The notes beneath the pieces were generated by a model. That model ran no database searches. It saw only the letters and a list, made by a program, of their open reading frames with translations, and was not told the origin of the DNA. A DNA stretch of 64,000 bases, from assembly GCF_009937975.1 (NCBI RefSeq), contig NZ_AP018441.1, forward strand, positions 5,394,001 to 5,458,000. The letters are read 5' to 3'. Each line of letters opens with the position of its first letter. The first letter of the stretch is position 1. This DNA comes from Undibacterium sp. YM2. Lineage in GTDB: Bacteria; Pseudomonadota; Gammaproteobacteria; Burkholderiales; Burkholderiaceae_D. Made by a program: the position numbers and the translations under genes. This document shows, in pieces, positions 15,733 through 35,298 of the stretch.

Positions 15733-17196
15733 TTAGCGAGGCAAAACAGAATCACCCATCAAGAAGGCATCCACTTCGCGCGCGCATTGACGTCCTTCGC
15801 GTATCGCCCATACCACCAACGACTGACCACGGCGCATGTCACCTGCGGCATACACCTTGTCTACATTGGTCTTGTAGCAGCCAGCACCATCAGTCGTTGC
15901 CCTGGCATTGCCACGCGCATCCTTATCGACACCAAAAGCATCGAGCACCTGTTGTACCGGCGAGACAAAGCCCATGGCCAGCAAGACCAGGTCGGCTTTC
16001 ATCTCAAATTCTGAATCAGGCACTTCCTGCATCTTGCCATCTTTCCATTCGACGCGGCAGGCGATCAGTTTTTCGACCTTGCCTGCCTTGCCTTCCAGGC
16101 GCTTGGTAGCTACTGCCCAGTCGCGGTCGCAACCTTCTTCATGTGAAGAAGAGGTGCGCAACTTGGTTGGCCAGTAAGGCCAGACCAGGGGTTTGTTTTC
16201 TTGCTCTGGCGGTTGTGGCATCAGTTCAAACTGGGCAACTGATTTGGCACCATGACGGTTGGATGTGCCTACGCAGTCAGAGCCGGTATCGCCACCACCA
16301 ATGACGACGACATGCTTGCCACTGGCCATGATCTGGTCCTTGACCTTGTCACCAGCGTTGACCTTGTTTTGCAAGGGCAAAAAGTCCATGGCGAAATGCA
16401 CACCTTTGAGTTCGCGGCCAGGCACGGGCAAATCGCGCGGGGTTTCTGCACCACCGGCGATGATGACGGCATCGAAGTCTTTTTGCAGTTGCTCAGGCGA
16501 GATGGTTTCCTTGGCCCAGTTGGTCACTGTTGCCGGGAAGTCCTTGCCAACGAATACGCCAGTGCGGAAAGTCACCCCCTCTGCCACCATCTGATCGACA
16601 CGGCGGTCGATATGGGATTTTTCCATCTTGAAGTCAGGAATACCATAGCGCAGCAAGCCACCGACACGGTCATTCTTTTCAAATACAGTCACATCATGGC
16701 CAACACGCGCCAGTTGCTGTGCCGCTGCCAGGCCCGCAGGACCAGAGCCAACCACGGCAATTTTCTTGCCAGTCTTGATGGATGGCACTTGCGGTACGAC
16801 CCAGCCGTTTTCCCAGCCTTTGTCGATGATGAAATGTTCTATCGACTTGATGCCAACAGCGTCGCTATTGATACCCAGGGTGCAGGCTGATTCACAAGGT
16901 GCCGGACAAATACGGCCGGTGAATTCCGGGAAATTATTCGTCGAATGCAGGGTATCGAAGGCCAGTTTGTAATTGCCGTTGAACACCAGGTCATTCCAGT
17001 CAGGGATGATGTTGTTCACAGGGCAGCCGTTATTACAGAAAGGAATGCCGCAATCCATGCAGCGTGCGGCCTGCACCTTGGCCTGGCCATCATCGAGATG
17101 CACCAGAAATTCCTTGTAATGCTTTTTGCGTGACTGCGGCGCTTCGCTTGCTTCCTGCAAACGCTGGTATTCCATGAAGCCGGTAACTTTACCCAT
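15733..17196 (-). CDS. gltD: Glutamate synthase (NADPH) small subunit GltD
   Basis: A 487-residue flavoprotein that takes electrons from NADPH to the large subunit. The N-terminal cysteine-rich region ([20 protein letters not shown] and later [12 protein letters not shown]) binds two 4Fe-4S clusters. The FAD site is [20 protein letters not shown] and the NADPH site is [17 protein letters not shown]; the C-terminal FAD motif is [18 protein letters not shown]. It follows gltB by 113 bp on the same strand. Confidence 0.96.
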
Positions 17197-17309
17197 TTTC
17201 TAACCTCAATTTTGTTGCGGGCATCTGCCCTGTCCGAATCTAAAATAAGCTGAATAGTCTGGAGAACACAGGAAGGCGCTACCGCAGCATGGCGGCAGCA
17301 CTCACTCAA

Positions 17310-20300: not shown

Positions 20301-21998
20301 TATCGGTTGCGCGACTTCAAGACGCATCGGCGGGTTGATGTTATTGGTGTCGAGCAGATTAGGTTTTGGACCTATGAAAGACACCAGCGACATCACCATC
20401 GCTTCGCGGATAGGGTCGATAGGCGGATTGGTTACCTGCGCAAACAATTGCTTGAAGTAGTTGTACAGAGGCTTGAGCTTGTTCGACATGACAGCCAGCG
20501 AAGAATCATTGCCCATGGAGCCTATGGCTTCTTCACCACCTATCGCCATCGGTGCCATCAGGAACTTGAGGTCTTCCTGGGTGTAACCAAAGGCCTGCTG
20601 CCTGTCCAGCAAAGTCGCCGAGTATTCTGTTTTGTCTTCTGCTGCCTTCAATTCATTGAGCTTGATACGTACCGATTGTATCCACTGCTTGTAAGGCTTG
20701 GCATTGGCATAGGTATCCTTGATTTCCTTATCGTCGATGATGCGGCCAGCTTCCAGGTCGATGAGGAACATCTTGCCTGGTTGCAGACGCCATTTCTTGA
20801 TGATCTTGGATTCTGGAATAGGCAGAACACCGGATTCAGACGCCATGACGACCAGGTCATCATCAGTAACGATATAACGTGCAGGGCGCAGGCCATTACG
20901 GTCCAGCGTACCACCAATCTGGCGGCCATCGGTAAAGGCCATGGCGGCTGGTCCGTCCCATGGTTCCATCATGGCAGCGTGGTATTCATAGAAGGCACGG
21001 CGGTTGTCGTCCATCATGGTGTGGTTTTCCCAGGCTTCCGGGATCATCATCATCATGGCTTGCGCGATTGGATAACCAGCCATGACCAGCAATTCCAGCG
21101 CATTGTCGAAACTTGCAGTGTCAGACTGGCCTTCAAATATCAGCGGATACAGTTTTTGCAGATCGTCGCCAAGTACGGCGGATTTCATGACGCCTTCACG
21201 GGCGCGCATCCAGTTGAAGTTACCTTTAACGGTATTGATCTCACCATTGTGCGCAATCATGCGATAAGGGTGGGCCAGCGGCCATTCAGGGAAGGTATTG
21301 GTCGAGAAACGCTGATGCACCAGGGCCAGCGCAGACACGCAGCGATCATCCTGCAAATCTTTATAGTAGACACCAACCTGGTCAGCCAGCAGCAAACCTT
21401 TGTAGACGATGGTGCGGGCAGACATGGATGGTACGAAATATTCCTTGCCATGCAAGAGCTTCAGGGCCTCAATCGCATGTACAGCCGATTTGCGTATCAC
21501 ATACAGTTTGCGTTCCAGTGCATCGGTGACCATGATGTCAGGGCCGCGACCGATGAAAATCTGGCGTATGACAGGTTCTTTTTCACGCACAGTAGGCGAC
21601 ATGGGCATATCGCGGTCTACCGGCACATCACGCCAGCCCAGTACTACCTGGCCTTCTGCGCGCACGGCACGTTCTATTTCCTGTTCGCAAGCCAGGCGGG
21701 ATGCATGTTCCTTAGGCAGGAAGATCATGCCTACGCCATATTCACCGGGTGGAGGCAGGTTGATGCCCTGCTTGGCCATCTCTTCGCGGTAATACTGGTC
21801 AGGAATCTGGATCAGGATACCGGCACCGTCACCCATCAGGGCATCGGCACCAACCGCGCCCCTGTGGTCAAGATTTTTCAAAATCAATAAGCCCTGATCG
21901 ACGATGGCATGTGTCTTCTTGCCTTTGATATGGGCAACAAAACCTACGCCACAGGCGTCATGTTCATTGGATGGGTCGTATAAACCTTGAGCGTGCAT
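17310..21998 (-). CDS. gltB: Glutamate synthase (NADPH) large subunit GltB
   Basis: A 1562-residue enzyme that makes two glutamates from glutamine and 2-oxoglutarate. I use the ATG at 21998, preceded by a GGAG-type ribosome site, and not the earlier start at 22091: the propeptide then reads [16 protein letters not shown] and C16 is the expected mature N-terminal nucleophile. The glutaminase domain comes first, then the central domain, the FMN-binding synthase domain with [18 protein letters not shown], the 3Fe-4S cysteines in [15 protein letters not shown], and the C-terminal right-handed beta-helix GXXGXXXG domain. Length is normal. Its upstream region carries an inverted-repeat structure (22028-22240). 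Confidence 0.97.
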
Positions 21999-22445
21999 AG
22001 TGGATCTCCGGAGGACAATTTCAATATCAGGACTTACGTGAAACAGCTGTCGGCATGAATAGCTGGCTTGCTTATCTTGGCTATTCAGCAATTTTGCTGG
22101 CTGCGGATGGCAGCTTGATGACGTTAGCTTGAAGGGTGATCAAACTGTGGGCCATGCTTCCGGGTAAGGGCACGGCGCTACGCTGGACAAATGTGCCAAG
22201 TATTTTTTAATACCGGCACGACAGTTTGGCGTAAATCCTGTCAGGACAAGACAGAGAATAGTGCAGTGCAAAATATTACGCAACTGCTTTAATTAGGGTC
22301 AGTGTCAATTTAAAATAATCATATTCTCATGAATATTTAAATAGGGACATAGTAAAAGAAGCCGTGTTGACTGAGTTTCCGGTGCTCATATCAGGATTTT
22401 TCGGTATGAAAGTAGCCCGCAGGCAAGCTTATGTGAAAGAAGAGC
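21999..22445. other. Gene-free region between gltB and the RAYT transposase
   Basis: About 447 bp with no credible gene. It holds the inverted-repeat structure at 22028-22240, which probably also contains the gltB promoter, and an AT-rich stretch near 22290-22350 of the kind (agggtcagtgtcaatt, then agggacat) I associate with surroundings of tyrosine transposase genes; that association is from memory. Confidence 0.5.
22028..22240. repeat. Possible degenerate inverted-repeat element upstream of gltB
   Basis: The left end starts CAGGACTTACG (22028-22038). Read on the opposite strand, the right end starts CAGGATTTACG (22230-22240). Both continue with similar sequence (…AAAC, TGTCG) if a 3-base gap is allowed. 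The left 11 bases are identical to the outer end of the element at 42911-43100. It may be an old, decayed member of the same MITE family; the interior is not similar by eye. Confidence 0.35.
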
Positions 22446-23144
22446 TCAGGCGCTTTCCAGGGCCTTGCGGGGGCGGCCACGCTTGACTGGCTCTACCCGC
22501 CTCTCAGTCAGCTTGCTCATTTCTATCTTGAATTTAGCCGAGCCCAGCATCCAGGCCTTGGTGGTAGCCTGGCTAATTTCACTGATTTGCGTATTTGACA
22601 AGCCATGCTCCAGGCTTTGCTTATAGGCAGCCTCGCGCTGGAAAGGCGTATTGCCCAATGCCCAGTAACAACTATGATCAGTGATCAGGGGGTCAATATG
22701 CAAACCTACATGATGCCTGTAACTGGACCAGGTGTAATCGAGCAAATCCTGCACCAGACCGGCACGCAGAGGATTGCTTTCCATATAAATACTGCAAGGG
22801 ATGAAGTAATTGGCAGATTCAATGACAGTCGCACGGTAGCGTCCCTGCCACAGGGTGCCGGTGCGCTGATATTTGCGATTGAAATAAGGGACATAGTGAC
22901 GGCCCAGCCACTGCATCATCTTGCCCAGACCTGGTTCATCACCGGGTGTCAGCAGCAGATGCAGGTGATCTGGCATCAATACATAGGCATGGATGGCAAC
23001 ATCAAACAGCTTGGCCGCTTGCTTGAGCCAGTCCAGAAAGCTGCTGTAATCCTCGGCATCCTGAAAAATCACGGCACCGGCATTGCCACGCTGGATAACA
23101 TGATGTTGCTGATGCGGAATAACGAGTCGGGCTAATCTGGCCAT
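22446..23144 (-). CDS. REP-associated tyrosine transposase (RAYT, Y1_Tnp)
   Basis: A 232-residue single-strand-specific HUH-type transposase relative. The metal-binding H-L-H pair is at residues 60-62 (MPDHLHLL), and the candidate catalytic tyrosine is Y120 in IYMESNPLRAGLV. LWQGRYRATVIES and YTWSSYRHH are other family blocks; the tail KRGRPRKALE is a basic AT-hook-like motif. RAYTs are usually single-copy domesticated genes linked to dispersed REP hairpins. Two strong hairpins lie 150-240 bp upstream of the start (23293-23383). The gene looks intact. Confidence 0.92.
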   Translation of the reverse strand: MARLARLVIPHQQHHVIQRGNAGAVIFQDAEDYSSFLDWLKQAAKLFDVAIHAYVLMPDHLHLLLTPGDEPGLGKMMQWLGRHYVPYFNRKYQRTGTLWQGRYRATVIESANYFIPCSIYMESNPLRAGLVQDLLDYTWSSYRHHVGLHIDPLITDHSCYWALGNTPFQREAAYKQSLEHGLSNTQISEISQATTKAWMLGSAKFKIEMSKLTERRVEPVKRGRPRKALESA

Positions 23145-23966: not shown

Positions 23967-24944
23967 TTATTTGATGCGTGAGGCTTCAAGAACGAAGCTC
24001 AGCTTGCCAAAACGTGCACTAACTTCATCAAATTTCTTTTGTTTTTGCGCATCAGTGAGGCTGGTGTTATTCAAATTGTCGCGCAAAAGGCTAAACAATG
24101 TTAAATCGGCGATAGGTTTCAACTGTGCATCGGTAGAACGCTGGAAACCGGACAAATTCAAAATGTCTTTCAACACAGCCTGCGCCTGTTTTTGCTTGCC
24201 ATAATTGACAAAGAAATCTTCTACGCGGGTTTTCAGGGCTGGCGACATGTCCTTGCGGTACAGGATAGGGTCATTGGGTATCAAAGGCGAAGTCCAAATG
24301 ACGCGCACCTTGCTGAGCTGATCTGGTGCTTCTTTCTTCAGCCTGTCCATCTCTTCACTATTAAAGGTGGCGACATCGGCTTCACCGCGCAAAATAGAAG
24401 AAAAATTCGCCTGATGATTACCAACGATGACCTTCTTGAACAGTTTTGCCGGATCTATCTTGTTCTTGGAAAACAGGTAATAAGCAGGAACCAGATAACC
24501 AGACGTCGATTTTTTATCGCCATCAGCAAAGATATACACGCCAGGTTTGGAAGAGACCTGGTCAAAGCTGGTCAGTGCGCTTTTGCTGGATGCAATGATG
24601 ACGGAGTTATAACCGCGTGAACCATCACTTTTGACCATTTGAGCAAACACGGTCGCCTTGCCATCTTCCACCGCATCCAGTGCGACCTTGCTGCTCAGCC
24701 AGGCGATTTGTATTTTGTTTTCTTTCAAACCAGCAACGATGTCGCTGTAATTCGAAGAAATGGCGGCAGTCACTTCTGTGCCTGTGCTTTTTGCCAGGTC
24801 ATCCAGCAAAGGCTGCCAGCGTTTGCGGGTGTCCTCTATGCTTGTTGTAGCGATCAGACCTACGGTGATTTTTTCTGCTGCGTGGGCAAGGGACATGAAC
24901 ATACTGCTGAGCAGCAGTATCAGGGCGAAACTTTTTTTCAACAT
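23967..24944 (-). CDS. PhnD-like periplasmic substrate-binding protein (orphan)
   Basis: A 325-residue protein of the phosphate/phosphite/phosphonate binding-protein family (PhnD, PF12974). The signal peptide is MLKKSFALILLLSSMFMSLAHA. The family pattern appears in VGLIATTSIEDTRKRWQPLLDDL, the SSNYSDIVAGLKENKIQIAWLSSKVALDA segment, and VIVGNHQANFSSILRGEADVATFNSEEMDRL, where PhnD members contact the ligand. No permease or ATPase gene is adjacent, so it either serves a transporter encoded elsewhere or acts as a sensor partner. The ligand is unknown. Confidence 0.86.
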   Translation of the reverse strand: MLKKSFALILLLSSMFMSLAHAAEKITVGLIATTSIEDTRKRWQPLLDDLAKSTGTEVTAAISSNYSDIVAGLKENKIQIAWLSSKVALDAVEDGKATVFAQMVKSDGSRGYNSVIIASSKSALTSFDQVSSKPGVYIFADGDKKSTSGYLVPAYYLFSKNKIDPAKLFKKVIVGNHQANFSSILRGEADVATFNSEEMDRLKKEAPDQLSKVRVIWTSPLIPNDPILYRKDMSPALKTRVEDFFVNYGKQKQAQAVLKDILNLSGFQRSTDAQLKPIADLTLFSLLRDNLNNTSLTDAQKQKKFDEVSARFGKLSFVLEASRIK

Positions 24945-25210: not shown

Positions 25211-25235
25211 GAGCCCTGTGTTTTACTCAGGGCTC
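25211..25235 (-). terminator. Hairpin overlapping the galM stop codon
   Basis: Arms GAGCCCTG (25211-25218) and CAGGGCTC (25228-25235), loop of nine bases. The galM stop codon (25227-25229) lies in the upstream arm. No T-run follows, so it may be a processing or stability element for the end of the udh operon mRNA. Confidence 0.45.
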
Positions 25236-26390
25236 TTGGTCTGACAGCACCTGCTTGCTCTTCGGCAGAGGCGTGACAGAAAAGCGCAAACTGGTCACAG
25301 ACTTAAACACTTGCCCTGGATTAAGCACCGTCGAAGGAAAATTCGCGTGATTCGGGCTGTCGGGCAAGTGCTCGGTTTCTAAGGCAAAGCCGTCATGACG
25401 CTGGTAGGCTGAGGCTTCGCTGCCATCAAAGCCATTACCGCTATTGAACTGCACAGAGGGCTCTGTGGTGTAGATGTCCATTTGCCGGCCAGATACAGTT
25501 TCAGAGATGCGTGCAACGGCCCGCAGGGACTGATCCCAGTTTGCGAACAGCAGACTGTGATCATAGCCAGGTGGCTGCCCCAGCAAGGCGTCAACTTGTT
25601 CAAGATGGCGTGTGATGACGGTGGGCTTACGCAAATCCAGCACGCTATCATCTACCGACAAAATACGTCCCGTAGGTATGCGTTTATTGTCGGTCTCGGT
25701 GTAACGGTCGGCATGGATTTGAAACAGGTGGGTACTCAAACCTCTGCTGCCTGCACCCGCCAGGTTGAAATAGCCATGATTGGTCAGGTTGATGACTGTC
25801 ACTTTATCACTGACGGCACGATATTCAATATTGAATGCATTGCGCGCCTTGTACAGGCGGTAAGTGACTGTTACCCGCACTTCACCCGGGAGGCCCTGAT
25901 CACCGTCAGGGCTGAGCAAATTGAAATGCGAGCCCAGACTGTCGTTCTTATCAAAGTCCTGGCGTGACCACACCCGTTTGTCAAAACCTTGCGGGTCACC
26001 ATGCAGGGCGACGCCTTTTTCATTGGCAGGCAGATGATAAGTTTGTCCATTCAATGCAAATTCCGCTTTGCCTATGCGCCCAGCATAGCGCCCTATGATG
26101 GACGCATGCCTGTGCCGAGTAGTTAAATAAGCTGGCAAATCAGGTAGCCTGAGCACTATATTGGCCAGTCTGCCATCGCGGTCTGGCACTTCGACAGTAG
26201 TGATTGTCGCGCCATAATCTATATAGCAAACCCGCATCTGCGTGTCGTTTTGGAGGCAGTGTTCCTGCACCGCCTGACCATTAGCTGTCTTGCCCCAGTC
26301 GCTATCCTGACTGTGGGCGGCGAGCGCCACAGTGCTAATACACGCCATACACGCCAGAATGACGAGCATTACTATGCGAACTAGCGACAA
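25227..26390 (-). CDS. Secreted aldose 1-epimerase (GalM type)
   Basis: A 387-residue mutarotase interconverting alpha and beta anomers of free sugars. The core has VINLTNHGYFNLAG (catalytic histidine), EVRVTVTYRL, GYDHSLLF and the catalytic-glutamate region ALETEHLPDSPNHANFPSTVLNPGQVF. Unusually for GalM there is an N-terminal signal peptide (LVILACMACISTVALAAHS), predicting a periplasmic enzyme. It is the last gene of udh - lyase-like - galM and overlaps the previous gene by 10 bp. In this setting it probably acts on uronic acids or oligosaccharides released by the locus. Confidence 0.9.
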   Translation of the reverse strand: MSLVRIVMLVILACMACISTVALAAHSQDSDWGKTANGQAVQEHCLQNDTQMRVCYIDYGATITTVEVPDRDGRLANIVLRLPDLPAYLTTRHRHASIIGRYAGRIGKAEFALNGQTYHLPANEKGVALHGDPQGFDKRVWSRQDFDKNDSLGSHFNLLSPDGDQGLPGEVRVTVTYRLYKARNAFNIEYRAVSDKVTVINLTNHGYFNLAGAGSRGLSTHLFQIHADRYTETDNKRIPTGRILSVDDSVLDLRKPTVITRHLEQVDALLGQPPGYDHSLLFANWDQSLRAVARISETVSGRQMDIYTTEPSVQFNSGNGFDGSEASAYQRHDGFALETEHLPDSPNHANFPSTVLNPGQVFKSVTSLRFSVTPLPKSKQVLSDQEP

Positions 26391-27271
26391 CTGGAATCCG
26401 GCTGGCTGCCACGCGTGATGCCAAGATTGGCAAAATAGACGTAATCATCCTTGTCCTGATTCAGCATCCCATGATGCTTGCGGTAGATGCCCCATTTCGG
26501 GCGCATGTGGTCTGCCCCTGTACGCCATAATTGCAGGCCTGCGCTGTCGATTTCCAATACGGGCTTGTCGTCCTGTCCGCGCATGCTCAACTGATAACGT
26601 CCGGCAGAATTTGAGAATGTGATCTGCTCGCGCACGTCTATCCATTGTCCCTGTATCTGCGACAAAGCCACCGTGCCGAGCACATGATAAACACCGCCCT
26701 CATTTTTCAGATCATCAATTTGCCGCACTTCCATACGGCCACTCGCCAATGGCGTAAAAGTGATCAGTGGCGGTTCCGCATAGCGGCCACCATAGGCCTT
26801 GATCTGATGGATATGCGTAAACGAGGGTAAAAACTTCATGCCAGCATCAATCTTGAAACGCCAGCTATACACAAAGCTGTTATTTTCACGCGCCTTGAAG
26901 GCCTGATGCATGCCCATCAGACTGGGGGCAATCTTGATCTCGGTGCGAGAACGGTCACTACCCTCAGCCATGGTCTTGCCATCCAGGTTGACATCTGTCG
27001 GGTCTATCGCCAGCACAGCAAAATAGGCGGGCACTACATCATCACCCGCCTCAATAATATGCGGCCTGGCTGGTGCGTAGCGCGTATCACTCGGGGCTTC
27101 CACTGCTCCCTTGCCAAAGACATTTTCTATCCTGGCATAGGTATCTGTGCCACCCGGCTTTTGTGCATTCAGGCACAAGGTATTGCCGGTTATGCCGGAA
27201 GTCGCATCAGCGGCAAAAGCAGGCAAAGCACTGGCAGCCAGCAAGATACTGGATAAAATGGTTAAGCGCAT
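26381..27271 (-). CDS. Secreted jelly-roll protein, putative polysaccharide lyase
   Basis: A 296-residue protein with a signal peptide (MRLTILSSILLAASALPAFA). I see three motif blocks in the order R-T-E-I-K (around residue 108), H-I-H-Q-I-K-A-Y-G-G (middle) and R-P-K-W-G-I-Y-R (near 255). They parallel the RxE, QIH and KxGxY motifs of beta-jelly-roll polysaccharide lyases (PL7/PL20 clan; heparin-lyase-I-like PF14099). This assignment is by eye and the substrate is not proven. It lies 9 bp after udh and overlaps galM, in an operon under a LacI-type operator, which fits cleavage of a uronic-acid polymer in the periplasm or outside. Confidence 0.7.
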   Translation of the reverse strand: MRLTILSSILLAASALPAFAADATSGITGNTLCLNAQKPGGTDTYARIENVFGKGAVEAPSDTRYAPARPHIIEAGDDVVPAYFAVLAIDPTDVNLDGKTMAEGSDRSRTEIKIAPSLMGMHQAFKARENNSFVYSWRFKIDAGMKFLPSFTHIHQIKAYGGRYAEPPLITFTPLASGRMEVRQIDDLKNEGGVYHVLGTVALSQIQGQWIDVREQITFSNSAGRYQLSMRGQDDKPVLEIDSAGLQLWRTGADHMRPKWGIYRKHHGMLNQDKDDYVYFANLGITRGSQPDSSCR

Positions 27272-27280
27272 GAACTTGCC

Positions 27281-28123
27281 TCAGTCCTGATATTGCGGCC
27301 CAGCGACGACGAATGGCCCACCCTGATAGGTGCTGGTCATGTCGTCAGCAGCAGGCCAGTTCGCAGTCAGCGGGAAACGTCCGGCGAACTCGCTGGAACT
27401 ATCCTTGGGCACAAACCCCAGATGTGCTGCCTTGCTGTTATCCCACCATTTCGCCGGATTGTCCGATACGCCAAAGACGATGCTGTGACCAACTTTTGGC
27501 GTGAACAGCGCCGCCCTGATCAATTCCAGCAAATCATCGTAACTGAGATAAGTCACCATCATGCGGGTATTACGGGGCTCAGGAAAGGACGAGCCTATGC
27601 GCAGGCATACCGTCTCTATGCTAAAACGGTCATAGTAATAACGTGACAGCGCTTCGCCATAAGATTTGCTGAGACCATAAAAACCATCTGGCCGCAGCGG
27701 GCTGTCCGCATTCACTTTTTCTGTCGTCGGATAAAAACCAACGACATGGCTGGAACTGGCATAAATAACGCGTTTGATACCCAGCTTGTGTACCGCTTCA
27801 TACAAATGATACATGCCCAGGATATTGGCCTGCATGATGGGCTCAAACTTGTCTTCGACAGAGATGCCGCCAAAGTGCAGCACGGCATCGACATCTTTCA
27901 GTAATTCAAATACCCCTGCCCTGTCAGCCAGGTCGCAGGTCTGCGCCTCTTCGCCAGGCACCAGGTTTTCTATATCGACGATATCACTGAGTCTGAGTAT
28001 TTTTGTCCAGGGCTTCAGGCGTTCACGCAAAACCCGGCCCAGGCCACCGGCTGCACCCGTCAAGAGCAGGCGATTAAAAGGCTTTTCACTGGATTGCTCA
28101 CTAAATTGTTCAGTCATCATCAT
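27281..28123 (-). CDS. udh: Uronate dehydrogenase (NAD-dependent)
   Basis: A 280-residue short-chain dehydrogenase/epimerase-fold enzyme. The nucleotide-binding motif is TGAAGGLGRVL and the catalytic Y-x-x-x-K is YGLSKSYGEAL. The pattern LRIGSSFPEPRNTRMMVTYLSYDDL and GVSDNPAKWWDNSKAAHLGFVPKDSS is characteristic of uronate dehydrogenases, which oxidise D-galacturonate or D-glucuronate to the aldarolactone. Three ATG codons stand in a row at 28115-28123, so the exact start is ambiguous by two residues. It is first in a three-gene operon, behind a promoter whose start point carries a 20-bp palindrome. Entry into the oxidative (glucarate/galactarate) pathway is implied. Confidence 0.9.
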   Translation of the reverse strand: MMMTEQFSEQSSEKPFNRLLLTGAAGGLGRVLRERLKPWTKILRLSDIVDIENLVPGEEAQTCDLADRAGVFELLKDVDAVLHFGGISVEDKFEPIMQANILGMYHLYEAVHKLGIKRVIYASSSHVVGFYPTTEKVNADSPLRPDGFYGLSKSYGEALSRYYYDRFSIETVCLRIGSSFPEPRNTRMMVTYLSYDDLLELIRAALFTPKVGHSIVFGVSDNPAKWWDNSKAAHLGFVPKDSSSEFAGRFPLTANWPAADDMTSTYQGGPFVVAGPQYQD

Positions 28124-28189
28124 TTTTGATTTCAGGTTGGTGTAGGCCCTGATTTGCCCTGTTGTAGCAAATCAAGGCAAATCGGGCTG

Positions 28190-28236
28190 TTAGTTAAACG
28201 TTTAACTAAGTATATAGAAATTTCTGCCGTGGTCAA
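28190..28236 (-). promoter_or_regulatory. udh promoter with LacI-type operator
   Basis: On the minus strand: -35 TTGACC (28231-28236), 16-bp spacer, -10 TATACT (28209-28214). Immediately downstream, over the expected transcription start, is the perfect 20-bp palindrome TTAGTTAAACGTTTAACTAA (28190-28209) with the central CG typical of LacI-family operators. The LacI-type gene at 28418 is adjacent and divergent. Confidence 0.75.
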
Positions 28237-28370
28237 ATATTTCCTTGCCACCCTACGCAAATCTATTCCCTGCTCTCGAAGAGTGTCGCCTTCCGAGGTG
28301 CGCCTGGGAGATGACATTGATGCATGTCTGGTAGTTTGTACGGTAAGATGCATCCTGAATCAGCCTGGCG

Positions 28371-28386
28371 GTTAAACGCTTACAAC
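28371..28386 (+). promoter_or_regulatory. Possible weak operator in front of the lacI-type gene
   Basis: GTTAAACGCTTACAAC shares the left half and central CG of the udh operator but is only a partial palindrome. If the regulator starts at 28418 it lies in the 5' untranslated region and could give autoregulation. Confidence 0.35.
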
Positions 28387-28417
28387 CATGGCTTGTCTGG
28401 AATACTTTTTATACGCG

Positions 28418-29410
28418 ATGAAGAAAAAACCACCGACCATACGTGATGTCGCCGCAGAAGCAGGCGTCTCTACTGCCACCATTTCCAAATTCATCAATGG
28501 CACGCAACGTTTTTCTTCTACCGTAGAAGCCAGGATCACCGCTGTCATTGACAGCCTGGGCTACCGCTCCAACCCGCTGGCGCAATCCATGATCACCGGG
28601 CGCACCAAGTCCATAGGCCTGTCGATACTCGATGTCAGCAATCCCCATTTCACCAGCATCGTCAAAGGGGCCAACCGCATCGCCATAGAACATGGCTACA
28701 CCTTGTTGCTGGTCGATACCGAAGAAAACCTGGGTCGCGAAAAACCCCTGATAGAAGCATTGAGCCGCCGTGTCGATGGCATGATACTTTTTTCACGCAT
28801 GAGTGAAGCCGACCTGAGCTGGACCGAGCAATTGGAAAAACCCCTGGTATTCTTTGGCCGCCTGAGCCAGCTCAGTTCGCCCTGTGTCAGCAGTGATGAT
28901 CACAAGGGTGCCTATATGCTGGCGCAACACTTGCTGACCCTGGGCCACAAGCATATTGCCTATATGGGCTTCAATAAATCCCGCCGTGATGAAGAACGAT
29001 TTGGCGGCCTGCAGGAATGCCTGAACGAGCATCAACTGACAGCAGAAATCTACAACGTCAATTCACCGTCTGCACAAGAAGGCGAACGCCTGTGCTCCTC
29101 CATCATGCTCGGCAAACAGCATCCTGATGCCGTGGTTTGCTATAACGATCTGATGGCGCTGGGCTTCATGAAAGAAGCGCAAAACCTCGGTTTTGATATT
29201 CCCCGCGATGTTTCTGTGGCTGGCTTCGACAATATCCAGTATGGCCGTTACACCTCGCCAGCATTGACTTCTGTCGATCTGCAAAGTGAAGAAATGGGAG
29301 TGGCCGCCATGCGCACGCTGATAGGCATCATCAATGGTGAAGCCGCACAGGGCCTGACAACGATAGCGCCACAACTGGTCTTGCGCTCATCCGTCATGAA
29401 TAGAAAATAA
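28418..29410 (+). CDS. LacI-family transcriptional regulator of the uronate locus
   Basis: About 330 residues. The N-terminal helix-turn-helix and hinge are standard (TIRDVAAEAGVSTATISKFING, then GYRSNPLAQSM), followed by a periplasmic-binding-protein-like effector domain (SIGLSILDVSNPHFTSIVKGA, GFNKSRRDEERFGGL, DVSVAGFDNIQYGRYTSPALTSVD). I prefer ATG 28418, giving MKKKPPTIRDV, over ATG 28388; neither has a clear ribosome site. It lies between two transcription units that both carry matching palindromes at their start points, so it most likely represses both, with a uronate or oligo-uronide as inducer. Confidence 0.9.
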   Translation: MKKKPPTIRDVAAEAGVSTATISKFINGTQRFSSTVEARITAVIDSLGYRSNPLAQSMITGRTKSIGLSILDVSNPHFTSIVKGANRIAIEHGYTLLLVDTEENLGREKPLIEALSRRVDGMILFSRMSEADLSWTEQLEKPLVFFGRLSQLSSPCVSSDDHKGAYMLAQHLLTLGHKHIAYMGFNKSRRDEERFGGLQECLNEHQLTAEIYNVNSPSAQEGERLCSSIMLGKQHPDAVVCYNDLMALGFMKEAQNLGFDIPRDVSVAGFDNIQYGRYTSPALTSVDLQSEEMGVAAMRTLIGIINGEAAQGLTTIAPQLVLRSSVMNRK

Positions 29411-29471
29411 GCCTTCCCCGGCAAACAGCAAGACCGGCAAAGCAAATCCCATTTGTGCAAAAAAGCAACAA

Positions 29472-29493
29472 TTTAAGAAAACGTTTTCTTTAA
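29472..29493 (+). promoter_or_regulatory. Auxiliary LacI-type operator
   Basis: A 16-bp perfect palindrome AAGAAAACGTTTTCTT (29475-29490) inside a 22-bp imperfect one, again centred on CG. Its centre is 156 bp, close to 15 DNA turns, upstream of the centre of the operator at 29627-29650, a spacing compatible with looping. Confidence 0.55.
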
Positions 29494-29599
29494 TACGATG
29501 TACAGGCCTATCTCTGCTTAAAGAAATTCCCGTTCTTGTCATTTGATCTCTATTCAAAGACAGCAAATTGAATAGCGATCAAAAAATTTTAAATTCAGG

Positions 29600-29650
29600 T
29601 TTACCTTCAATTTGAATTCATCTACTATTTAGTTAAACGTTTTCCTAAAT
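29600..29650 (+). promoter_or_regulatory. Promoter and operator of the secreted enzyme / TonB receptor unit
   Basis: -35 TTTACC (29600-29605), 17-bp spacer, -10 TACTAT (29623-29628). A 24-bp palindrome at 29627-29650 (core AGTTAAACGTTTTCCT, two mismatched pairs, central CG) covers the expected start point, the same geometry as at udh. The start codon follows at 29711 after an AGGAG ribosome site. Confidence 0.7.
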
Positions 29651-29710
29651 GCTTTGAAGCACAAGCGCGAAGCTGCATATACAGGGAGACATAACAAAAT
29701 CAGGAGATGT

Positions 29711-31609
29711 ATGTCTTACCGCAATCCCATACTCAACAATCTGTACAAGCTTTGCATCACAGCATCTGCACTTGCCTGGAATCTGACAGCCTCAGCCAAC
29801 GCCAACCTGCCTTCGCAAGCGGCACAAGCGCAACTACTGCCCATGAACACCATGGTGCAGGAATCGCTGTATCCCCAGCTTGACTACCTGTCGCAAAAAC
29901 TGCTGACCGAGAGATTGCAAACCACACTGGCGGGTTACCCTGCTTTCAATGGCAAGGACAAATTCCTGTCAGGGAAAATCGCCACCGGCCTCGCCCATTT
30001 AATGCTGAACCCTGCCCTGACACCAGAAGCCAGGCGCAAGGCTGCAGAAAATTTCCGTACCAGTGCCGACATGACCGTTGATATGGAAAACCATACCTGG
30101 GGCATTTACTATTATTTGCTGGCACTGCAACAGATACAGCAAGCGGGCTTGCTGGAGCAGGCAGTCAGTCCGGCCACCCTGACCAAACTCAAGAAACAAC
30201 TGGACTGGCGCAGCTTTGTCAATGAAGCTGACCTGAAACTCATCAACTTGCCGACCAATTATTATGGCGTGGCATTTGGCGTGGCACGTCTGCGCATGTT
30301 GCTCGGTTGGGAAGATGCCAGTGGCAGTGAAAAACTTTTGAACACCCTGCTGGCGCATTACGATGCCCACTCTGGCGAATATGGTTTTTCTGATGAAACC
30401 GATGGTGAAGGCCGCTTTGACCGCTACAGTATTTTATTGATTGCCGAGATTTGCCACAGGCTCATAGAAACCGGCAAGGAAGTCCGGCCTGACTTGAAAC
30501 TGAAACTCAGGAAAGCCGCAGACATCGCCCTGAATATGGCAAATGACAAGGGCGATGGCTTCAGCTTTGGCCGCAGCATAGGCGCTTATGGTGATACGGC
30601 GATACTCGAAATTCTGTCGGCATCTGCTTATCTGGATGTCTTGACGCCCACGGAAAAAGATTACGCCTATGCCTACTCCACCCGCGTATTCAGCAAGTTT
30701 TTAAGCGTCTGGTATGACCCACAATTGCACTCCGTCGATTTGTGGGGCAAGGGCAGGAAAACCGATGCCTACCGTGGTGCGCACAGGGTGCTGGGTGAAA
30801 ATTTTTCGCTCCTGCATCAATTGCTGACGACGAATGCCATCTGGCACAAACTCGGTTATGACCAGCGTATACCGCTGGCTGACCTGCAAGCATGGGCAGA
30901 TAAAACCCAGCCACGGTTCAGCTTCAACTGGTTTGCGCGCGGTGAGTATGACAGGGCATTGGCTATCTATCGCGACCGCCAGCATGTGTTCAGCCTGTTA
31001 CTGGCCAATGGCGGTGCAGGCCAGCATGCGAACAGCCCCTACTACCCGCTACCGTTTTCAAATGATCTCATCGTCGGCATACCGGACAGTGGCTTTGCCC
31101 ATCCCCAGCTTATCCCTAGTCTGACGCTGACAGATGGCAGCAAGCTGCTGGCGACCGCCTTCATCAGCAATATCCAGACTGGCAAGACAGCGAAGGGTGA
31201 ATTTCTCAGCTATCAGCAAAGCGGGCTGACACGCATGACAGGTGAAGGCAAACCGCCTCAAAAAGATGAGAGGGTAAAGCTCAATAGCCGCTATCAGTTT
31301 GAACCCGGCAGCATCAACAGGACAGATGAATTTGCAGCGACCGACAACACACAGATACAGCAAGCCAGCCTGGAGTTCAGCAGCTTTTCTGATGCTGTCA
31401 GACAGGATGGTAATCACATTTATTTCAGCAAAGGTGGTGTCACTGAATTCATCGTCGAAGGCCTGGAGAAATGCATGGTTAAACGGGTAGTTGGCGACGC
31501 TTACTTCCAGACCCCGGCTGGACCCTTCATCAACCATATCAGTTGCAGCACGCAACAGTTAAAGCCTGGGCAGCCACTGAAAATCAAATGGACGATACGG
31601 TACCAATAA
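29711..31609 (+). CDS. Secreted alpha/alpha-toroid protein, putative polysaccharide lyase or hydrolase
   Basis: A 632-residue exported protein of uncertain family. ATG 29711 is preceded by AGGAG and gives a signal peptide (residues about 1-29, ending near ASANA); the frame runs further upstream without a ribosome site. Residues about 70-420 are helical with aromatic-rich repeats (HTWGIYYYLLALQQI, NYYGVAFGVARLRMLLGWED, GFSFGRSIGAYGDTAILEIL), suggesting an alpha/alpha toroid; the C-terminal third looks beta-rich (SLEFSSFSDAVRQDGNHIYF). This two-part plan resembles heparinase II/III- and PL8-type lyases, but I cannot assign a family or catalytic residues. First gene of the plus-strand unit, followed by the TonB receptor. 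Confidence 0.6.
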   Translation: MSYRNPILNNLYKLCITASALAWNLTASANANLPSQAAQAQLLPMNTMVQESLYPQLDYLSQKLLTERLQTTLAGYPAFNGKDKFLSGKIATGLAHLMLNPALTPEARRKAAENFRTSADMTVDMENHTWGIYYYLLALQQIQQAGLLEQAVSPATLTKLKKQLDWRSFVNEADLKLINLPTNYYGVAFGVARLRMLLGWEDASGSEKLLNTLLAHYDAHSGEYGFSDETDGEGRFDRYSILLIAEICHRLIETGKEVRPDLKLKLRKAADIALNMANDKGDGFSFGRSIGAYGDTAILEILSASAYLDVLTPTEKDYAYAYSTRVFSKFLSVWYDPQLHSVDLWGKGRKTDAYRGAHRVLGENFSLLHQLLTTNAIWHKLGYDQRIPLADLQAWADKTQPRFSFNWFARGEYDRALAIYRDRQHVFSLLLANGGAGQHANSPYYPLPFSNDLIVGIPDSGFAHPQLIPSLTLTDGSKLLATAFISNIQTGKTAKGEFLSYQQSGLTRMTGEGKPPQKDERVKLNSRYQFEPGSINRTDEFAATDNTQIQQASLEFSSFSDAVRQDGNHIYFSKGGVTEFIVEGLEKCMVKRVVGDAYFQTPAGPFINHISCSTQQLKPGQPLKIKWTIRYQ

Positions 31610-31684
31610 AATTTAGCAACAAGAATTTAGCAAAAAAAATCAGCAGTAAAAAATAGTACAAAACTACAATATCCGGAGACAAGA

Positions 31685-34105
31685 ATGTCAGCACAATTCA
31701 GCAACAAGCAACATCCCATGCAACTCAAACCTCTGAGCTTTGCCATCAGCCTGGCCATGCTGGCCCTGACTCAGGCAGCACAGGCGCAACATGCAACTAC
31801 TGCAGAAACATCCGACGGCAAACTCAATGAAGTCGTGGTGTCGGCCAACAAGCGCATAGAAAAACTTGACCATGTGCCGATGGCGATTTCTGTCCTCGGT
31901 GATGCCACCTTACAGCGTAATAATGTCAGGGAAATCGCTGACGTCATCAACCTGTCACCCGCATTGTCGATTACCTATGGTTCGACACCTGCCAATAATG
32001 GCATCAATATGCGCGGTATAGGTACCACATCAATAGGCATAGGTGTAGAAGCTGACGTGGCAGTCATCATTGATGATATCCCAATGGGCATGCAGGTCAA
32101 GGCCTTCCAGGATTTGACCGACATCTCACGCATAGAAATCTTGAAAGGCCCGCAGAGCACACTGTTTGGTAAAAGCGCGATTGCCGGTGCGGTCAATATC
32201 GTCACCAAGCCTATCTCCGGCCCGCTGGCAGGTAGCGCCAGCACCTTATATACCAGTGATGGCGAATGGCGCTTTGGCCTGACTTACGGTGGGGAAGTAT
32301 CCGAGAAATTCGGCTTCAGGCTCAGTGCCAGCGATAACCGCTTCCCCGGCAATGTGAATAACCTGACTGATGGCAGCAAGGTCAATGGTTCTGGCGGCAA
32401 GACCTTCATGGCCAAACTCAGCTGGCATCCTACCGACAATATCGATGTCGATTTTTCGCCACGCTATAACAGCACCGTCACATCCTGCTGCGTGCTGGCA
32501 CTGACCAGCCTGACACCGGCACAAGGCGGTCTGTTGTCGAATATCGCGCAACTGCCAGCCACGACTTTATTGAATGGCATACGCATAGGCGCGGACAACA
32601 CCGATGTGCGCAATGACACCATGACAGGCCAGACTTCCACCAGCCGTGGCGCAGGCTTGAAATTCACTTACAACTTTGCCGATGGTTCTGCGCTGACCTC
32701 GATCTCTTCCGTCGACCGTTATTATGCAAACGACTCTCGCGACCAGGACTTTGTCGATGTACCTACCCTGCTGTACTACCCGCTGGCGAATGGCAAACCT
32801 GCCGGCATCAATGCTGGCTATACACAGTACGGCACATTTGATGTGAAATCGCAAACCCAGGAATTGCGCTATACCTCGAATGACAAGAATTCGCTGCGTT
32901 ATGTGATCGGTTACTGGTATGGAAAAAATTCCATAGAACGCCATTTCATACGCGGCTACAACGGCATTGCACTGACCACGCCCATCCAGTATTTCACTGA
33001 CACGTATAACGTCAACAGCGCGGTGTTTGGTCAGGCGACCTGGGACTTTGCCAAGAACTTCAGCCTGCTCGCAGGTTTGCGTTATAACCGTGAAACCTCG
33101 GGTTACCGTTTCTCCGTCGGCGCACCACCACCTGGCGCATATGTACAGACTGATTATTTTTCCAGCCTCGACAATACCGAGAATTCCACCACCGGCAAAC
33201 TCAGCCTGCAGCATCAGGTCAATAACAACCTGATGGTGTATGCCATGGGCTCCACCGGCTATAAAGGCCTGGCCTATGACTTGACCAGCGGCTTGAATGC
33301 AGCCACTGCGGCCCAGCAACCAGTCAAATCAGAAACTGCCAAGACCTTTGAAATTGGCCTTAAAGGCAATTTTCTCGACAACCGCCTGACGCTGAATGTC
33401 GCCGCCTTTAATAGCCGGTTCAGCGACTACCAGCAGAATTCTGGTGGTTATCTGCCTGGCACGACAACTTATGTGACGCGCCTCAACAGCGTAGGTGGCG
33501 TGCAGACACGCGGCGTGGAAATGGATGTCTCGGCATTGGTCACCAGGGACTTGATACTGAACGGCAGCATAGCCTACACCGATGCGACGATTACAGAGTT
33601 CCCAAATGCCCCTTGCTATAACGTTGCCGGCAGCCCTAACGGTGGCTTCAATGCCGAATGCCAGTTGAAGTCTGCCCAGTATGGTGGACAGAACGTGCAA
33701 GACCTGGCGGGAGCCAGAATGCCGAATGCGCCCAAGATCAAAGCCAACATAGGCGGACAATACGACCTGCGCTTCAGCAACCTGCCTTTCGACGCTTTCA
33801 TTACAGGCAGTGTGCGTTATCAAAGCGATGTCATCACCAACCTGAACCAGGACCCTACACTGGCGGTATCTGCGATCAGCGTGACGAATATCGGTTTTGG
33901 CATCAGGGACAAGATGAACAAGTACAAACTGAGCTTCTTCATCAACAACCTGTTTGACCGCCACTATGCCAATACCGGTTTCACCGGTGTCGGTAGCTGG
34001 AGCTCCAAAGCACCGAACCCTGTGCTGACAGTGACCAACACCACCTGGACACCGGCCCGTGATGCCTTCCGTTATTTCGGTGTCAGGCTGGACGCCAAGT
34101 TCTAG
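31685..34105 (+). CDS. TonB-dependent outer-membrane receptor
   Basis: An 806-residue receptor with a signal peptide ending near TQAAQAQ, a TonB-box-like N terminus (LNEVVVSANKR), a plug domain (VPMAISVLGDATLQRNN, ISRIEILKGPQSTLFGKSAIAGAVNIVTKP) and a 22-strand-type barrel ending in phenylalanine (GVRLDAKF). A ribosome site CCGGAG precedes ATG 31685. No SusD partner is present, as expected in proteobacteria. Placed between two putative secreted polysaccharide-active proteins, it most likely imports the oligosaccharides they release. Iron or vitamin uptake is less likely from the context. Confidence 0.93.
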   Translation: MSAQFSNKQHPMQLKPLSFAISLAMLALTQAAQAQHATTAETSDGKLNEVVVSANKRIEKLDHVPMAISVLGDATLQRNNVREIADVINLSPALSITYGSTPANNGINMRGIGTTSIGIGVEADVAVIIDDIPMGMQVKAFQDLTDISRIEILKGPQSTLFGKSAIAGAVNIVTKPISGPLAGSASTLYTSDGEWRFGLTYGGEVSEKFGFRLSASDNRFPGNVNNLTDGSKVNGSGGKTFMAKLSWHPTDNIDVDFSPRYNSTVTSCCVLALTSLTPAQGGLLSNIAQLPATTLLNGIRIGADNTDVRNDTMTGQTSTSRGAGLKFTYNFADGSALTSISSVDRYYANDSRDQDFVDVPTLLYYPLANGKPAGINAGYTQYGTFDVKSQTQELRYTSNDKNSLRYVIGYWYGKNSIERHFIRGYNGIALTTPIQYFTDTYNVNSAVFGQATWDFAKNFSLLAGLRYNRETSGYRFSVGAPPPGAYVQTDYFSSLDNTENSTTGKLSLQHQVNNNLMVYAMGSTGYKGLAYDLTSGLNAATAAQQPVKSETAKTFEIGLKGNFLDNRLTLNVAAFNSRFSDYQQNSGGYLPGTTTYVTRLNSVGGVQTRGVEMDVSALVTRDLILNGSIAYTDATITEFPNAPCYNVAGSPNGGFNAECQLKSAQYGGQNVQDLAGARMPNAPKIKANIGGQYDLRFSNLPFDAFITGSVRYQSDVITNLNQDPTLAVSAISVTNIGFGIRDKMNKYKLSFFINNLFDRHYANTGFTGVGSWSSKAPNPVLTVTNTTWTPARDAFRYFGVRLDAKF

Positions 34106-34204
34106 ACCTCTTCACAAATTCAGGCAGCGTCATAAGTGACGTGATAAGCAGCCAGCACCATTCATCACGCTCCTGATGCTCATACGTTTTTCATCCTTTC
34201 AAAT

Positions 34205-34222
34205 TCCGGCATTCCTGCCGGA
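34205..34222 (+). terminator. Possible terminator after the TonB receptor gene
   Basis: Seven-base stem TCCGGCA / TGCCGGA with a TTCC loop, 100 bp after the receptor stop, followed by a T-rich but interrupted stretch. It may separate or attenuate expression of the beta-helix gene. Confidence 0.45.
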
Positions 34223-34287
34223 TGGTTTTCTGCTGTCTGTTTTTATAACGAGAAATTAATCCCATCCAAACAAGCAAGGAGTACATC

Positions 34288-35298
34288 ATGTTATCGGCAA
34301 CATCAAATAGCAAAACAATGAGCTTGAAACCGGCTGTGGCATTCATCACGCTACTAGCCATTGCACTGCCTGCAATGGCAACGACTTACAAGGTCACAAC
34401 AGCCAAGGAATTGCAGGACGCCATCGGCAAGGTAAAGGCAGGTGATGTAATACAACTGGCAGCAGGCACCTACAAGGACAAGTTCGTCATCAAGAACAAA
34501 AGCGGCAAGGCTGACTCCCCCATACAACTGACCGGCCCAGCCGGCTCATCTGCCGCCGTGCTGGTGAACAGCGGCGGTTATGGCCTGTATCTCGATCACG
34601 CGAATTACTGGATCATTGATGGCATCACGGTCAATAATTCAGGCAAGGGCATCATTCTCGACACCTCCACCAACAACGTACTGCAAAACCTGACCGTGCA
34701 TGATGTCGATGATGAGGGCATACATTTTCGCGCCTTCAGCACCGACAATGTATTGAAAAACAGCCACATCTATAACACCGGCAAGAAACAGGCTGGCTTT
34801 GGTGAAGGCGTATATATAGGATCAGCCAATTCCAACTGGTGCACTTACACTTCATGCAACCCGGACAAGAGTGACCGCAACAAGGTGCTGACCAACAGCA
34901 TAGGGCCGAATGTGAATGCCGAGGGCATAGACATCAAGGAAGGTTCATCCGATGGTCTGATACAGGGCAATACCTTCGATGGCAGCGGCATCAGTGGTGA
35001 AAATTATGCCGACAGTGTGATTGATGTCAAAGGTAATAATTACGCCATCACCGGCAATACCGTCAATAACCATCCCACTTCCAGCGACAAGAACCTGCTG
35101 GACGGCTTTCAGGTGCACCAGGCTTATACTGGCTGGGGCAAGAATAATAAATTCAGCAGCAACCGTTTTAACCTCAATACCAAGGGTTATGGCATCAATG
35201 TACAGCCAGGCCTGACCGGCAATATCGTCTGTGACAATAACTCGGTAACGAATACAACAGGCGGTGTCGCCAATGTGGCACTGAGCCATTGCCAGTAA
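34288..35298 (+). CDS. Secreted right-handed parallel beta-helix protein, putative polysaccharide lyase
   Basis: A 336-residue exported protein; the signal peptide ends near PAMATT and an AGGAG ribosome site precedes ATG 34288. The body is a series of short beta-helix coils (YWIIDGITVNNSGKGIIL, NNVLQNLTVHDVDDEGIHF, NNYAITGNTVNNH, NNKFSSNRFNLN) with asparagine ladders. The region ELQDAIGKVKAGDVIQLAAGTYKDKFVI is the usual N-terminal cap of chondroitinase B/pectate-lyase-like proteins (PL6/PL9-like). Four cysteines may form two disulphides (NWCTYTSCNPDK; VCDNN; HCQ end). Substrate not determined; last gene of the uronate unit. Confidence 0.75.
   Translation: MLSATSNSKTMSLKPAVAFITLLAIALPAMATTYKVTTAKELQDAIGKVKAGDVIQLAAGTYKDKFVIKNKSGKADSPIQLTGPAGSSAAVLVNSGGYGLYLDHANYWIIDGITVNNSGKGIILDTSTNNVLQNLTVHDVDDEGIHFRAFSTDNVLKNSHIYNTGKKQAGFGEGVYIGSANSNWCTYTSCNPDKSDRNKVLTNSIGPNVNAEGIDIKEGSSDGLIQGNTFDGSGISGENYADSVIDVKGNNYAITGNTVNNHPTSSDKNLLDGFQVHQAYTGWGKNNKFSSNRFNLNTKGYGINVQPGLTGNIVCDNNSVTNTTGGVANVALSHCQ

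What the first reader, a model, noticed from the sequence alone, without database searches (positions are those of the whole stretch)
25227..35298. Two-unit uronic-acid polysaccharide utilisation locus with several unassigned secreted enzymes
The block combines uronate dehydrogenase, a signal-peptide-bearing mutarotase, three secreted proteins with lyase-like folds (jelly roll, alpha/alpha toroid, parallel beta helix), a TonB receptor and a LacI regulator. Uronate dehydrogenase implies that saturated D-glucuronate or D-galacturonate is an end product. No glycoside hydrolase of the unsaturated-uronide type (GH88/GH105), no SusD and no KDG-pathway gene is present, so the chemistry differs from standard pectin or alginate loci. 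A glucuronan-like or mixed polymer is possible. This is the best candidate here for an undescribed system.
Basis: partly seen in the sequence, partly recalled or inferred. Interest (0 to 1): 0.72.

Follow-up and report, generated by a model that had tools for sequence, protein, structure and literature searches.

The report
Probable glucuronic-acid polymer degradation genes
A bacterium carries a co-regulated set of genes for eating a sugar-acid polymer, probably made of glucuronic acid, and at its core is a secreted enzyme that matches no named family in the libraries searched and looks like a new kind of lyase.

Summary
In detail: an Undibacterium-type genome has a LacI-controlled locus with uronate dehydrogenase (UDH), a mutarotase, a TonB receptor and three secreted lyase-type proteins. 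Two can be assigned: the beta-helix protein is PL31 with all seven reported active-site residues, and the jelly roll belongs to the heparinase I (PL13)/glucuronan lyase (PL20) fold group. The third (29711-31609), an (alpha/alpha)6 toroid plus beta-sandwich, matches no Pfam, NCBIfam or PDB sequence. Its predicted fold is that of PL8/15/17/33/35 lyases; Asn202, Tyr203, Tyr258 and Tyr463 are invariant, but their beta-domain catalytic His is not. It is the core of a conserved regulon: 42 of 392 family genomes carry it, with UDH near it in 40 of 42; an operator, GTTAAACGTTTAAC, precedes UDH in 39 of those 40 and, in some loci, PL38-type, GH88 and KdgD genes. Best reading: utilisation of a beta-1,4-polyglucuronate (glucuronan)-like polymer, the toroid being a new-family, probably exolytic lyase and UDH feeding the glucarate/KdgD route. 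In Asticcacaulis a similar gene set has KduI and no UDH match, so UDH may oxidise the unsaturated monomer (DEH) directly. Substrate and activity are inferred, not shown.

The parts
25227..26390 (-). aldose-1-epimerase (mutarotase), signal peptide by inspection
   Evidence: PF01263 E 3.7e-73; translation; a GalM homologue in 9 of 42 related loci
26381..27271 (-). secreted jelly-roll polysaccharide lyase of the PL13/PL20 fold group
27281..28123 (-). uronate dehydrogenase (NAD-dependent SDR)
   Evidence: 6mfh E 1.6e-83, 3ay3 6.6e-81, 3rft 1e-78; YGLSK motif aligned; near the toroid in 40 of 42 loci
28190..28209 (.). perfect 20-bp palindrome TTAGTTAAACGTTTAACTAA between UDH and lacI, LacI-type operator
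   Evidence: core: 2 matches in the window, 0.07 expected; upstream of UDH in 39 of 40 loci that have UDH
28388..29410 (+). LacI-family regulator
   Evidence: PF00356, PF13377; homologue in 33 of 42 loci
29473..29492 (.). second palindrome TTAAGAAAACGTTTTCTTTA, possible LacI-family site
   Evidence: not compared in relatives
29628..29649 (.). operator-like TTTAGTTAAACGTTTTCCTAAA upstream of the toroid gene
   Evidence: core with 2 mismatches; similar site upstream of the toroid in L001, L016, L017, L018, L020, L134
29711..31609 (+). core enzyme: secreted (alpha/alpha)6 toroid + beta-sandwich protein, no Pfam, NCBIfam or PDB sequence match (TTG at 29654 also possible)
31685..34105 (+). TonB-dependent outer-membrane receptor, not SusC-like
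   Evidence: PF00593, PF07715; SusC/RagA model 67.6 bits, cut-off 368; homologue in 37 of 42 loci
34205..34222 (.). hairpin between receptor and PL31 gene, possible terminator
   Evidence: inspection only
34288..35298 (+). PL31 beta-helix lyase (alginate/glucuronan-type)
   Evidence: 6kfn PsAly E 6.7e-58; K120, H146, R148, Y176, K217, D246, K248 align with PsAly K128, H154, R156, Y184, K221, D250, K252; 3 of 42 loci

Best explanation
A LacI-family repressor controls a secreted and outer-membrane system that eats a polyuronide whose repeating acid is most likely beta-1,4-D-glucuronate. Endo-lyases (here PL31 and the PL13/PL20-type jelly roll; PL38- or PL6-type in relatives) cut the polymer by beta-elimination, and the TonB receptor takes oligosaccharides into the periplasm. 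There the toroid protein, the core of the system and a new sequence family, cleaves the oligosaccharides, most likely as an exolytic lyase with Asn202 (and Tyr203) on the carboxylate and Tyr258 plus a second tyrosine (Tyr463 or Tyr312) as acid and base. Monomers enter the cytoplasm, UDH oxidises C1, and a lactonase, GudD, KdgD and KGSADH encoded elsewhere in the genome lead to 2-oxoglutarate. Shown by computation: gene identities, PL31 active-site residues, predicted folds, conserved linkage and operator sites, presence of GudD and KdgD, no KduI found. Inferred: substrate, exo mode, elimination chemistry, which monomer UDH receives, that LacI binds the palindrome.
For: Linkage: toroid in 42 of 392 family genomes; near it UDH in 40 of 42 loci, TonB receptor 37, LacI 33, in several gene orders. 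Operator core upstream of UDH in 39 of 40 loci at 0-3 mismatches, 19 of them exact, and before PL38-type (L019, L024, L028), GH88-DUF4861 (L028) and KdgD (L020) genes. Partners act on polyuronides: PL31, PL38 (8bdq, 3nfv), PL6 (5gkd), GH88 (3wiw); the GH2 is closest to beta-glucuronidase models, below their cut-offs. Downstream: KdgD over cut-off in 14 of 15 carriers, GudD in 12 of 15 and just below in a 13th, KduI in 1 of 15, KduD over cut-off in 1 of 15; GudD near the toroid in 4 of 42 loci and about 10 kb away in G065. Fold: Foldseek rows 1-41 of 50 shown are uronide lyases of this two-domain type or human dermatan sulfate epimerase, PL33 first. Asn202 to Tyr258 is 56 residues, against 53-63 in known toroid lyases with Asn as neutraliser. 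In the PL17 lyase Smlt2602 changing the His after the catalytic Asn to Phe created exolytic poly-GlcA activity; the toroid has Tyr there in 47 of 47 sequences.
Confidence: 0.5

Rival explanations
1. The toroid is a beta-D-glucuronate dehydratase like BcGDH (former GH154): it turns saturated non-reducing ends into unsaturated ones that a GH88 hydrolase then removes.
Against: No GH88/GH105 (PF07470) match in carriers G027, G060 and G417, which are 93, 96 and 99% complete, nor near 11 of 42 toroids including the window's own. BcGDH lacks the C-terminal beta domain, which here carries invariant R440, D441 and Y463.
Confidence: 0.17
2. An alginate utilisation locus: PL31, PL38 and PL6 relatives with the toroid as a PL15/PL17 substitute making DEH from mannuronate and guluronate.
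For: PL31 PsAly and the closest PL6 relatives are alginate lyases; PL38 includes alginate lyases.
Against: UDH, GudD and beta-glucuronidase-like GH2 fit D-glucuronate (that UDH does not use mannuronate or guluronate is recalled knowledge). Tyr after the Asn fits poly-GlcA better than the His of PL17. CUL-I and TpPL38A (PL38) and a PL31-containing enzyme also cut glucuronan.
Confidence: 0.15
3. The toroid is a hydrolase (exo-beta-glucuronidase or unsaturated glucuronyl hydrolase) that releases glucuronate directly for UDH.
Against: Two-domain fold and Asn/Tyr spacing are those of lyases; Asticcacaulis pairs the toroid with KduI, an enzyme of unsaturated monomers.
Confidence: 0.13
4. The target is a heteropolymer (bacterial exopolysaccharide or glycosaminoglycan-like) rather than a homopolyuronide.
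For: Closest fold is the hyaluronan lyase PL33. GH3 in 16 and GH2 in 15 of 42 loci; sulfatases in L017.
Against: Known PL38, PL31 and PL6 substrates named in the papers read are mostly homopolyuronides. No hexosaminidase among the flanking genes that were run through Pfam or NCBIfam, but that was only a part of them.
Confidence: 0.12

Closest known systems
PL33 / PL35 / PL17 / PL15 toroid lyases
   Same: (alpha/alpha)6 toroid plus C-terminal beta domain, Asn and Tyr at matching spacing
   Different: No detectable sequence similarity; no invariant beta-domain His; Tyr after the Asn; many invariant arginines (R254, R257, R307, R368, R374, R378, R440)
BcGDH (former GH154) beta-D-glucuronate dehydratase
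   Same: Best match of the toroid domain alone; similar order of Asn, Arg and Tyr along the chain; often near GH88
   Different: No beta domain in BcGDH; three carrier genomes here have no GH88/GH105 match
PL31 PsAly (6KFN) and the PL31 module of CelAly
   Same: P0003: same family by sequence, all seven active-site residues kept
   Different: Single-domain, betaproteobacterial, in a glucuronate-type locus
Alginate utilisation systems (endo-lyases + PL15/17 + DEH reductase + KDG kinase) and the oxidative DEHU pathway of Flavobacterium UMI-01
   Same: Endo-lyase plus presumed exo-enzyme plus monomer oxidoreductase; DEHU oxidation to 2-keto-3-deoxy-glucarate is already published (PMC8563752, abstract and passages)
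   Different: New-family core enzyme; UDH and KdgD instead of FlRed and the RraA-type FlDet
PL38 glucuronan lyase CUL-I of Brevundimonas sp. SH203
   Same: PL38-type (PF05426) proteins stand near the toroid in 16 of 42 family loci, in G417 and in Asticcacaulis
   Different: CUL-I is an endo-lyase. An exo-type cellouronate lyase from the same strain is recalled from memory, not seen in any call; the toroid could be its counterpart

Membership tests
PL31 (P0003, 34288-35298) | sequence match to PsAly and the seven conserved active-site residues | tested here: met
[quoted passage not shown]
PL20 / PL13 (P0002, 26381-27271) | assignment to PL20 rather than PL13 or a separate family | tested here: inconclusive
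uronate dehydrogenase (P0004) | homology to structurally solved UDHs with SDR YxxxK motif | tested here: met
uronate dehydrogenase (P0004) | oxidises D-glucuronate/D-galacturonate with NAD+ | not testable with these tools
   needs assay
PL33, PL35, PL17 (toroid P0001) | two-domain toroid + beta-sheet fold | tested here: met
PL33, PL35, PL17 (toroid P0001) | sequence similarity to family members | tested here: not met
   no such PDB sequence match for the single sequence or the profile up to E 10, although structures of all three families are in the PDB; no Pfam hit for P0001 at E up to 10
PL33, PL35, PL17 (toroid P0001) | catalytic Asn and Tyr in the toroid | tested here: inconclusive
   N202 and Y258 invariant in 47 of 47 at matching spacing; no superposition possible
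PL33, PL35, PL17 (toroid P0001) | invariant catalytic His in the beta domain | tested here: not met
   no invariant His in the beta domain; His458 in 41 of 47
GH154 / beta-D-glucuronate dehydratase (toroid P0001) | fold of the toroid domain | tested here: met
GH154 / beta-D-glucuronate dehydratase (toroid P0001) | works with a GH88/GH105 hydrolase in the same genome | tested here: not met
   no PF07470 match in 3 of 15 carrier genomes
SusC/SusD-type PUL | SusC-type receptor with SusD partner | tested here: not met
   SusC model 67.6 bits against 368; no SusD family among the block's genes
any CAZy family for the toroid | CAZy/dbCAN HMM match | not testable with these tools
   library not available

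The most novel reading that the evidence does not exclude
The toroid founds a new polysaccharide lyase family, a native exolytic glucuronan (oligoglucuronide) lyase, and the linked 'uronate dehydrogenase' oxidises its product DEH directly to 5-keto-4-deoxy-glucarate, the substrate of KdgD. This would skip both the KduI/KduD/KDG-kinase route and the aldarate dehydratases. Hints: of 15 carriers 14 have no KduI match and 14 no KduD over its cut-off, while 14 have KdgD; in G065 the operator precedes KdgD but none lies in the GudD stretch; L129 holds lactonase, KdgD and KGSADH next to toroid and UDH with no GudD match (not every gene there was identified); in Asticcacaulis a gene set like the Duganella-type loci (PF05426, GH88-DUF4861, GH2, GH3, toroid) has KduI and no UDH match in 24 kb. 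The 4-deoxy-L-threo form from GlcA has the carbon skeleton and, by my reasoning, the stereochemistry of the KdgD substrate.
Probability: 0.25. Interest if true: 0.75.

Novelty: new variant of a known kind. Interest (0 to 1): 0.58.

Why it matters
If right, a secreted protein family now mostly labelled hypothetical (1497 proteins at E up to 0.001 among 7993 candidates scored) becomes a lyase family with a regulon and a likely substrate, and would supply an exo-step for glucuronan. PMC4765187 (abstract and passages) presented in 2016 an engineered variant as the first lyase known to its authors to act exolytically on glucuronan. It also makes a pathway question directly testable: whether UDH is a DEH dehydrogenase in lyase-based loci.

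Tried and rejected
Sequence searches of the toroid against Pfam, NCBIfam and PDB, alone and (PDB) as a profile, found nothing usable. The genome-contig scan with the single protein gave one locus only. The idea that absence of KduI proves direct DEH oxidation was weakened: GudD or a GarD-type gene is present in 14 of 15 carriers, and G060, which lacks GudD, has a true galactarate dehydratase. No operator at up to 2 mismatches was found in the own-genome KdgD, GudD or GarD stretches (L053, L142, L143), in L054, L055 and L144, or in L052 and L076, nor in L150 and L151, so in this genome the downstream genes are not visibly in the regulon. The first gene caller chose wrong strands in GC-rich loci and was replaced. 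Automatic upstream windows found the operator before the toroid in only 18 of 42 loci, an undercount because starts were extrapolated (L024 has one at 11138). PL7, PL15 and PL17 were not searched genome-wide, and only part of the flanking genes went through Pfam or NCBIfam. L140 was dropped before counting because it is the contig of L001.

Papers: PMC12269599 (passages; sections 5, 9, 10), PMC12088678 (passages; section 8), PMC11848413, PMC6796002, PMC4765187, PMC9227215, PMC13235733, PMC8618178 (passages), PMC8563752 (abstract, outline, passages). The listings (titles and abstract starts) of searches showed no description of the toroid family; they cover open-licence PMC only and long lists were cut.
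Full report
What is there. The window lies in a 6.66-Mb genome whose nearest named homologues are Undibacterium. Between 25227 and 35298 two units diverge around a LacI gene. The minus-strand unit is UDH, a jelly-roll lyase and a mutarotase. The plus-strand unit is lacI, the toroid, a TonB receptor and a beta-helix lyase.

Chemistry, inferred. In toroid lyases an Asn usually neutralises the carboxylate and a Tyr 53-63 residues later is acid or acid/base, with a beta-domain His or Tyr (PMC11848413, PMC12088678). N202 and Y258 are 56 apart. PL17 Alg17c was proposed to use Asn201, His202, Tyr258 and Tyr450; in its relative Smlt2602 changing that His to Phe raised exolytic poly-GlcA activity 28-fold, while Ala did nothing and Trp little, and there His418 rather than the second Tyr was judged the base (PMC4765187). 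The toroid has Tyr after the Asn throughout and a beta-domain Tyr463, but no invariant His there. This suits a two-tyrosine elimination on glucuronate; the residue equivalences rest on order and spacing only.

Linkage. Of 392 family genomes 42 carry the toroid, in 7 of 44 genera. In their 42 loci, mostly within about 10 kb (some cut by contig ends), UDH is found in 40, a TonB receptor in 37, LacI in 33, a GH88-type hydrolase in 31 (GH88-DUF4861 in 23, heparin-type GH88 in 14), a PF05426/PL38-type lyase in 16, GH3 in 16, GH2 in 15, GalM in 9, lactonase in 5, PL20-like in 4, GudD in 4, PL31 in 3, KdgD in 3, PL6 in 2 (the unions 31 and 16 were counted by hand from its rows). Three loci (L021, L127, L129) have none of the lyases or GH88 searched for; L028 and L127 have no UDH match. 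Gene order differs between types. PL38 is supported by matches to 3nfv and 8bdq for the L019 protein, PL6 by AlyGC 5gkd, GH88 by 3wiw; the GH2 is closest to beta-glucuronidase models but below their cut-offs. Outside the family the toroid is rare in samples: 2 of 369 genomes of the class search and 3 of 398 of the phylum search, the own genome counted in both, and 5 of 72,556 plasmid records.

Regulation. A perfect palindrome, TTAGTTAAACGTTTAACTAA, lies between UDH and lacI and a close copy before the toroid. With up to 2 mismatches the core has 2 matches in the window, 0.07 expected. Upstream of UDH it is present in 39 of 40 loci (19 exact, 17 with one mismatch, 3 with two or three; shuffled regions gave 0-3 of 50), also where no LacI gene is near. 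Sites lie before PL38-type genes in L019, L024 and L028, before GH88-DUF4861 in L028 and before KdgD in L020. So UDH, toroid, lyases and in one case KdgD look like one regulon. In the own genome no site was found at the KdgD, GudD and GarD stretches, and none in Asticcacaulis.

Downstream route. Among 15 carriers examined (14 of the family plus G417), KdgD is over its cut-off in 14, GudD in 12 and just below in G027, a GarD-type gene is present in 13, KduI in 1 and KduD over cut-off in 1. L020 (G065) holds PL38-type lyase, toroid, receptor, GalM, UDH, GarL, GarR, KdgD, a KGSADH-like enzyme, a transporter and a lactonase together, with GudD on the same contig just outside. This fits D-glucuronate to D-glucarate to 2-oxoglutarate. 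No GH88/GH105 match was found in G027, G060 and G417 (93, 96 and 99% complete), so in those genomes the toroid is unlikely to be merely a dehydratase that primes GH88.

A puzzle. Lyase chemistry yields DEH, not glucuronate. GH88 and the GH2 could supply glucuronate in many loci, but not visibly in all. In Asticcacaulis sp. AND118 the toroid (43% identity) follows a TonB receptor and a PF05426 protein and precedes GH88-DUF4861, GH3 and KduI, with a second PF05426 protein (45% to the L019 PL38) and a GH2 opposite, and no UDH or LacI match in 24 kb. KduI there and UDH here may fill the same slot, which would make UDH a DEH dehydrogenase. An oxidative DEHU route is already known in Flavobacterium UMI-01 with another enzyme set (PMC8563752).

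Verdict. A real, conserved, apparently singly regulated polyuronide locus whose core enzyme is a new sequence family with a lyase fold; glucuronan-type substrate and exolytic action are the best guess. It is a new variant of a known kind of system, not a new kind.

Noticed in passing
window 22446-23144 (-): REP-associated tyrosine transposase-like gene (64.9 bits, below the cut-off of 80).
   Followed up: no
window 23967-24944 (-): PhnD-like phosphonate/phosphate binding protein just outside the locus; also beside the locus in L001.
   Followed up: no
window 15733-22091 (-) and 39803-42742 (+): Farther flanks hold housekeeping genes: glutamate synthase small and large subunits and uvrA.
   Followed up: no
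L059 9412-11592 (G862), with a similar homologue in L058 (G864): Toroid homologues at about 32% identity; in L059 beside a TonB receptor with a carboxypeptidase-regulatory domain; no UDH match in 20 kb. Function may differ.
   Followed up: partly
L052 (G417): Toroid flanked by three large PF05426 proteins of 795-1028 aa in a genome without a GH88 or GudD match and without KdgD over cut-off.
   Followed up: partly
L053 5900-7201 (-): 433-aa predicted protein near the own-genome KdgD operon with no Pfam or NCBIfam hit.
   Followed up: no
window 29542-29583: 16-nt inverted repeat (94% complementary, 10-nt loop) upstream of the toroid gene, beside the operators.
   Followed up: no
L017 (G027): Two sulfatases beside toroid, UDH and a PL6 lyase, suggesting a sulfated polymer in that branch.
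   Followed up: no
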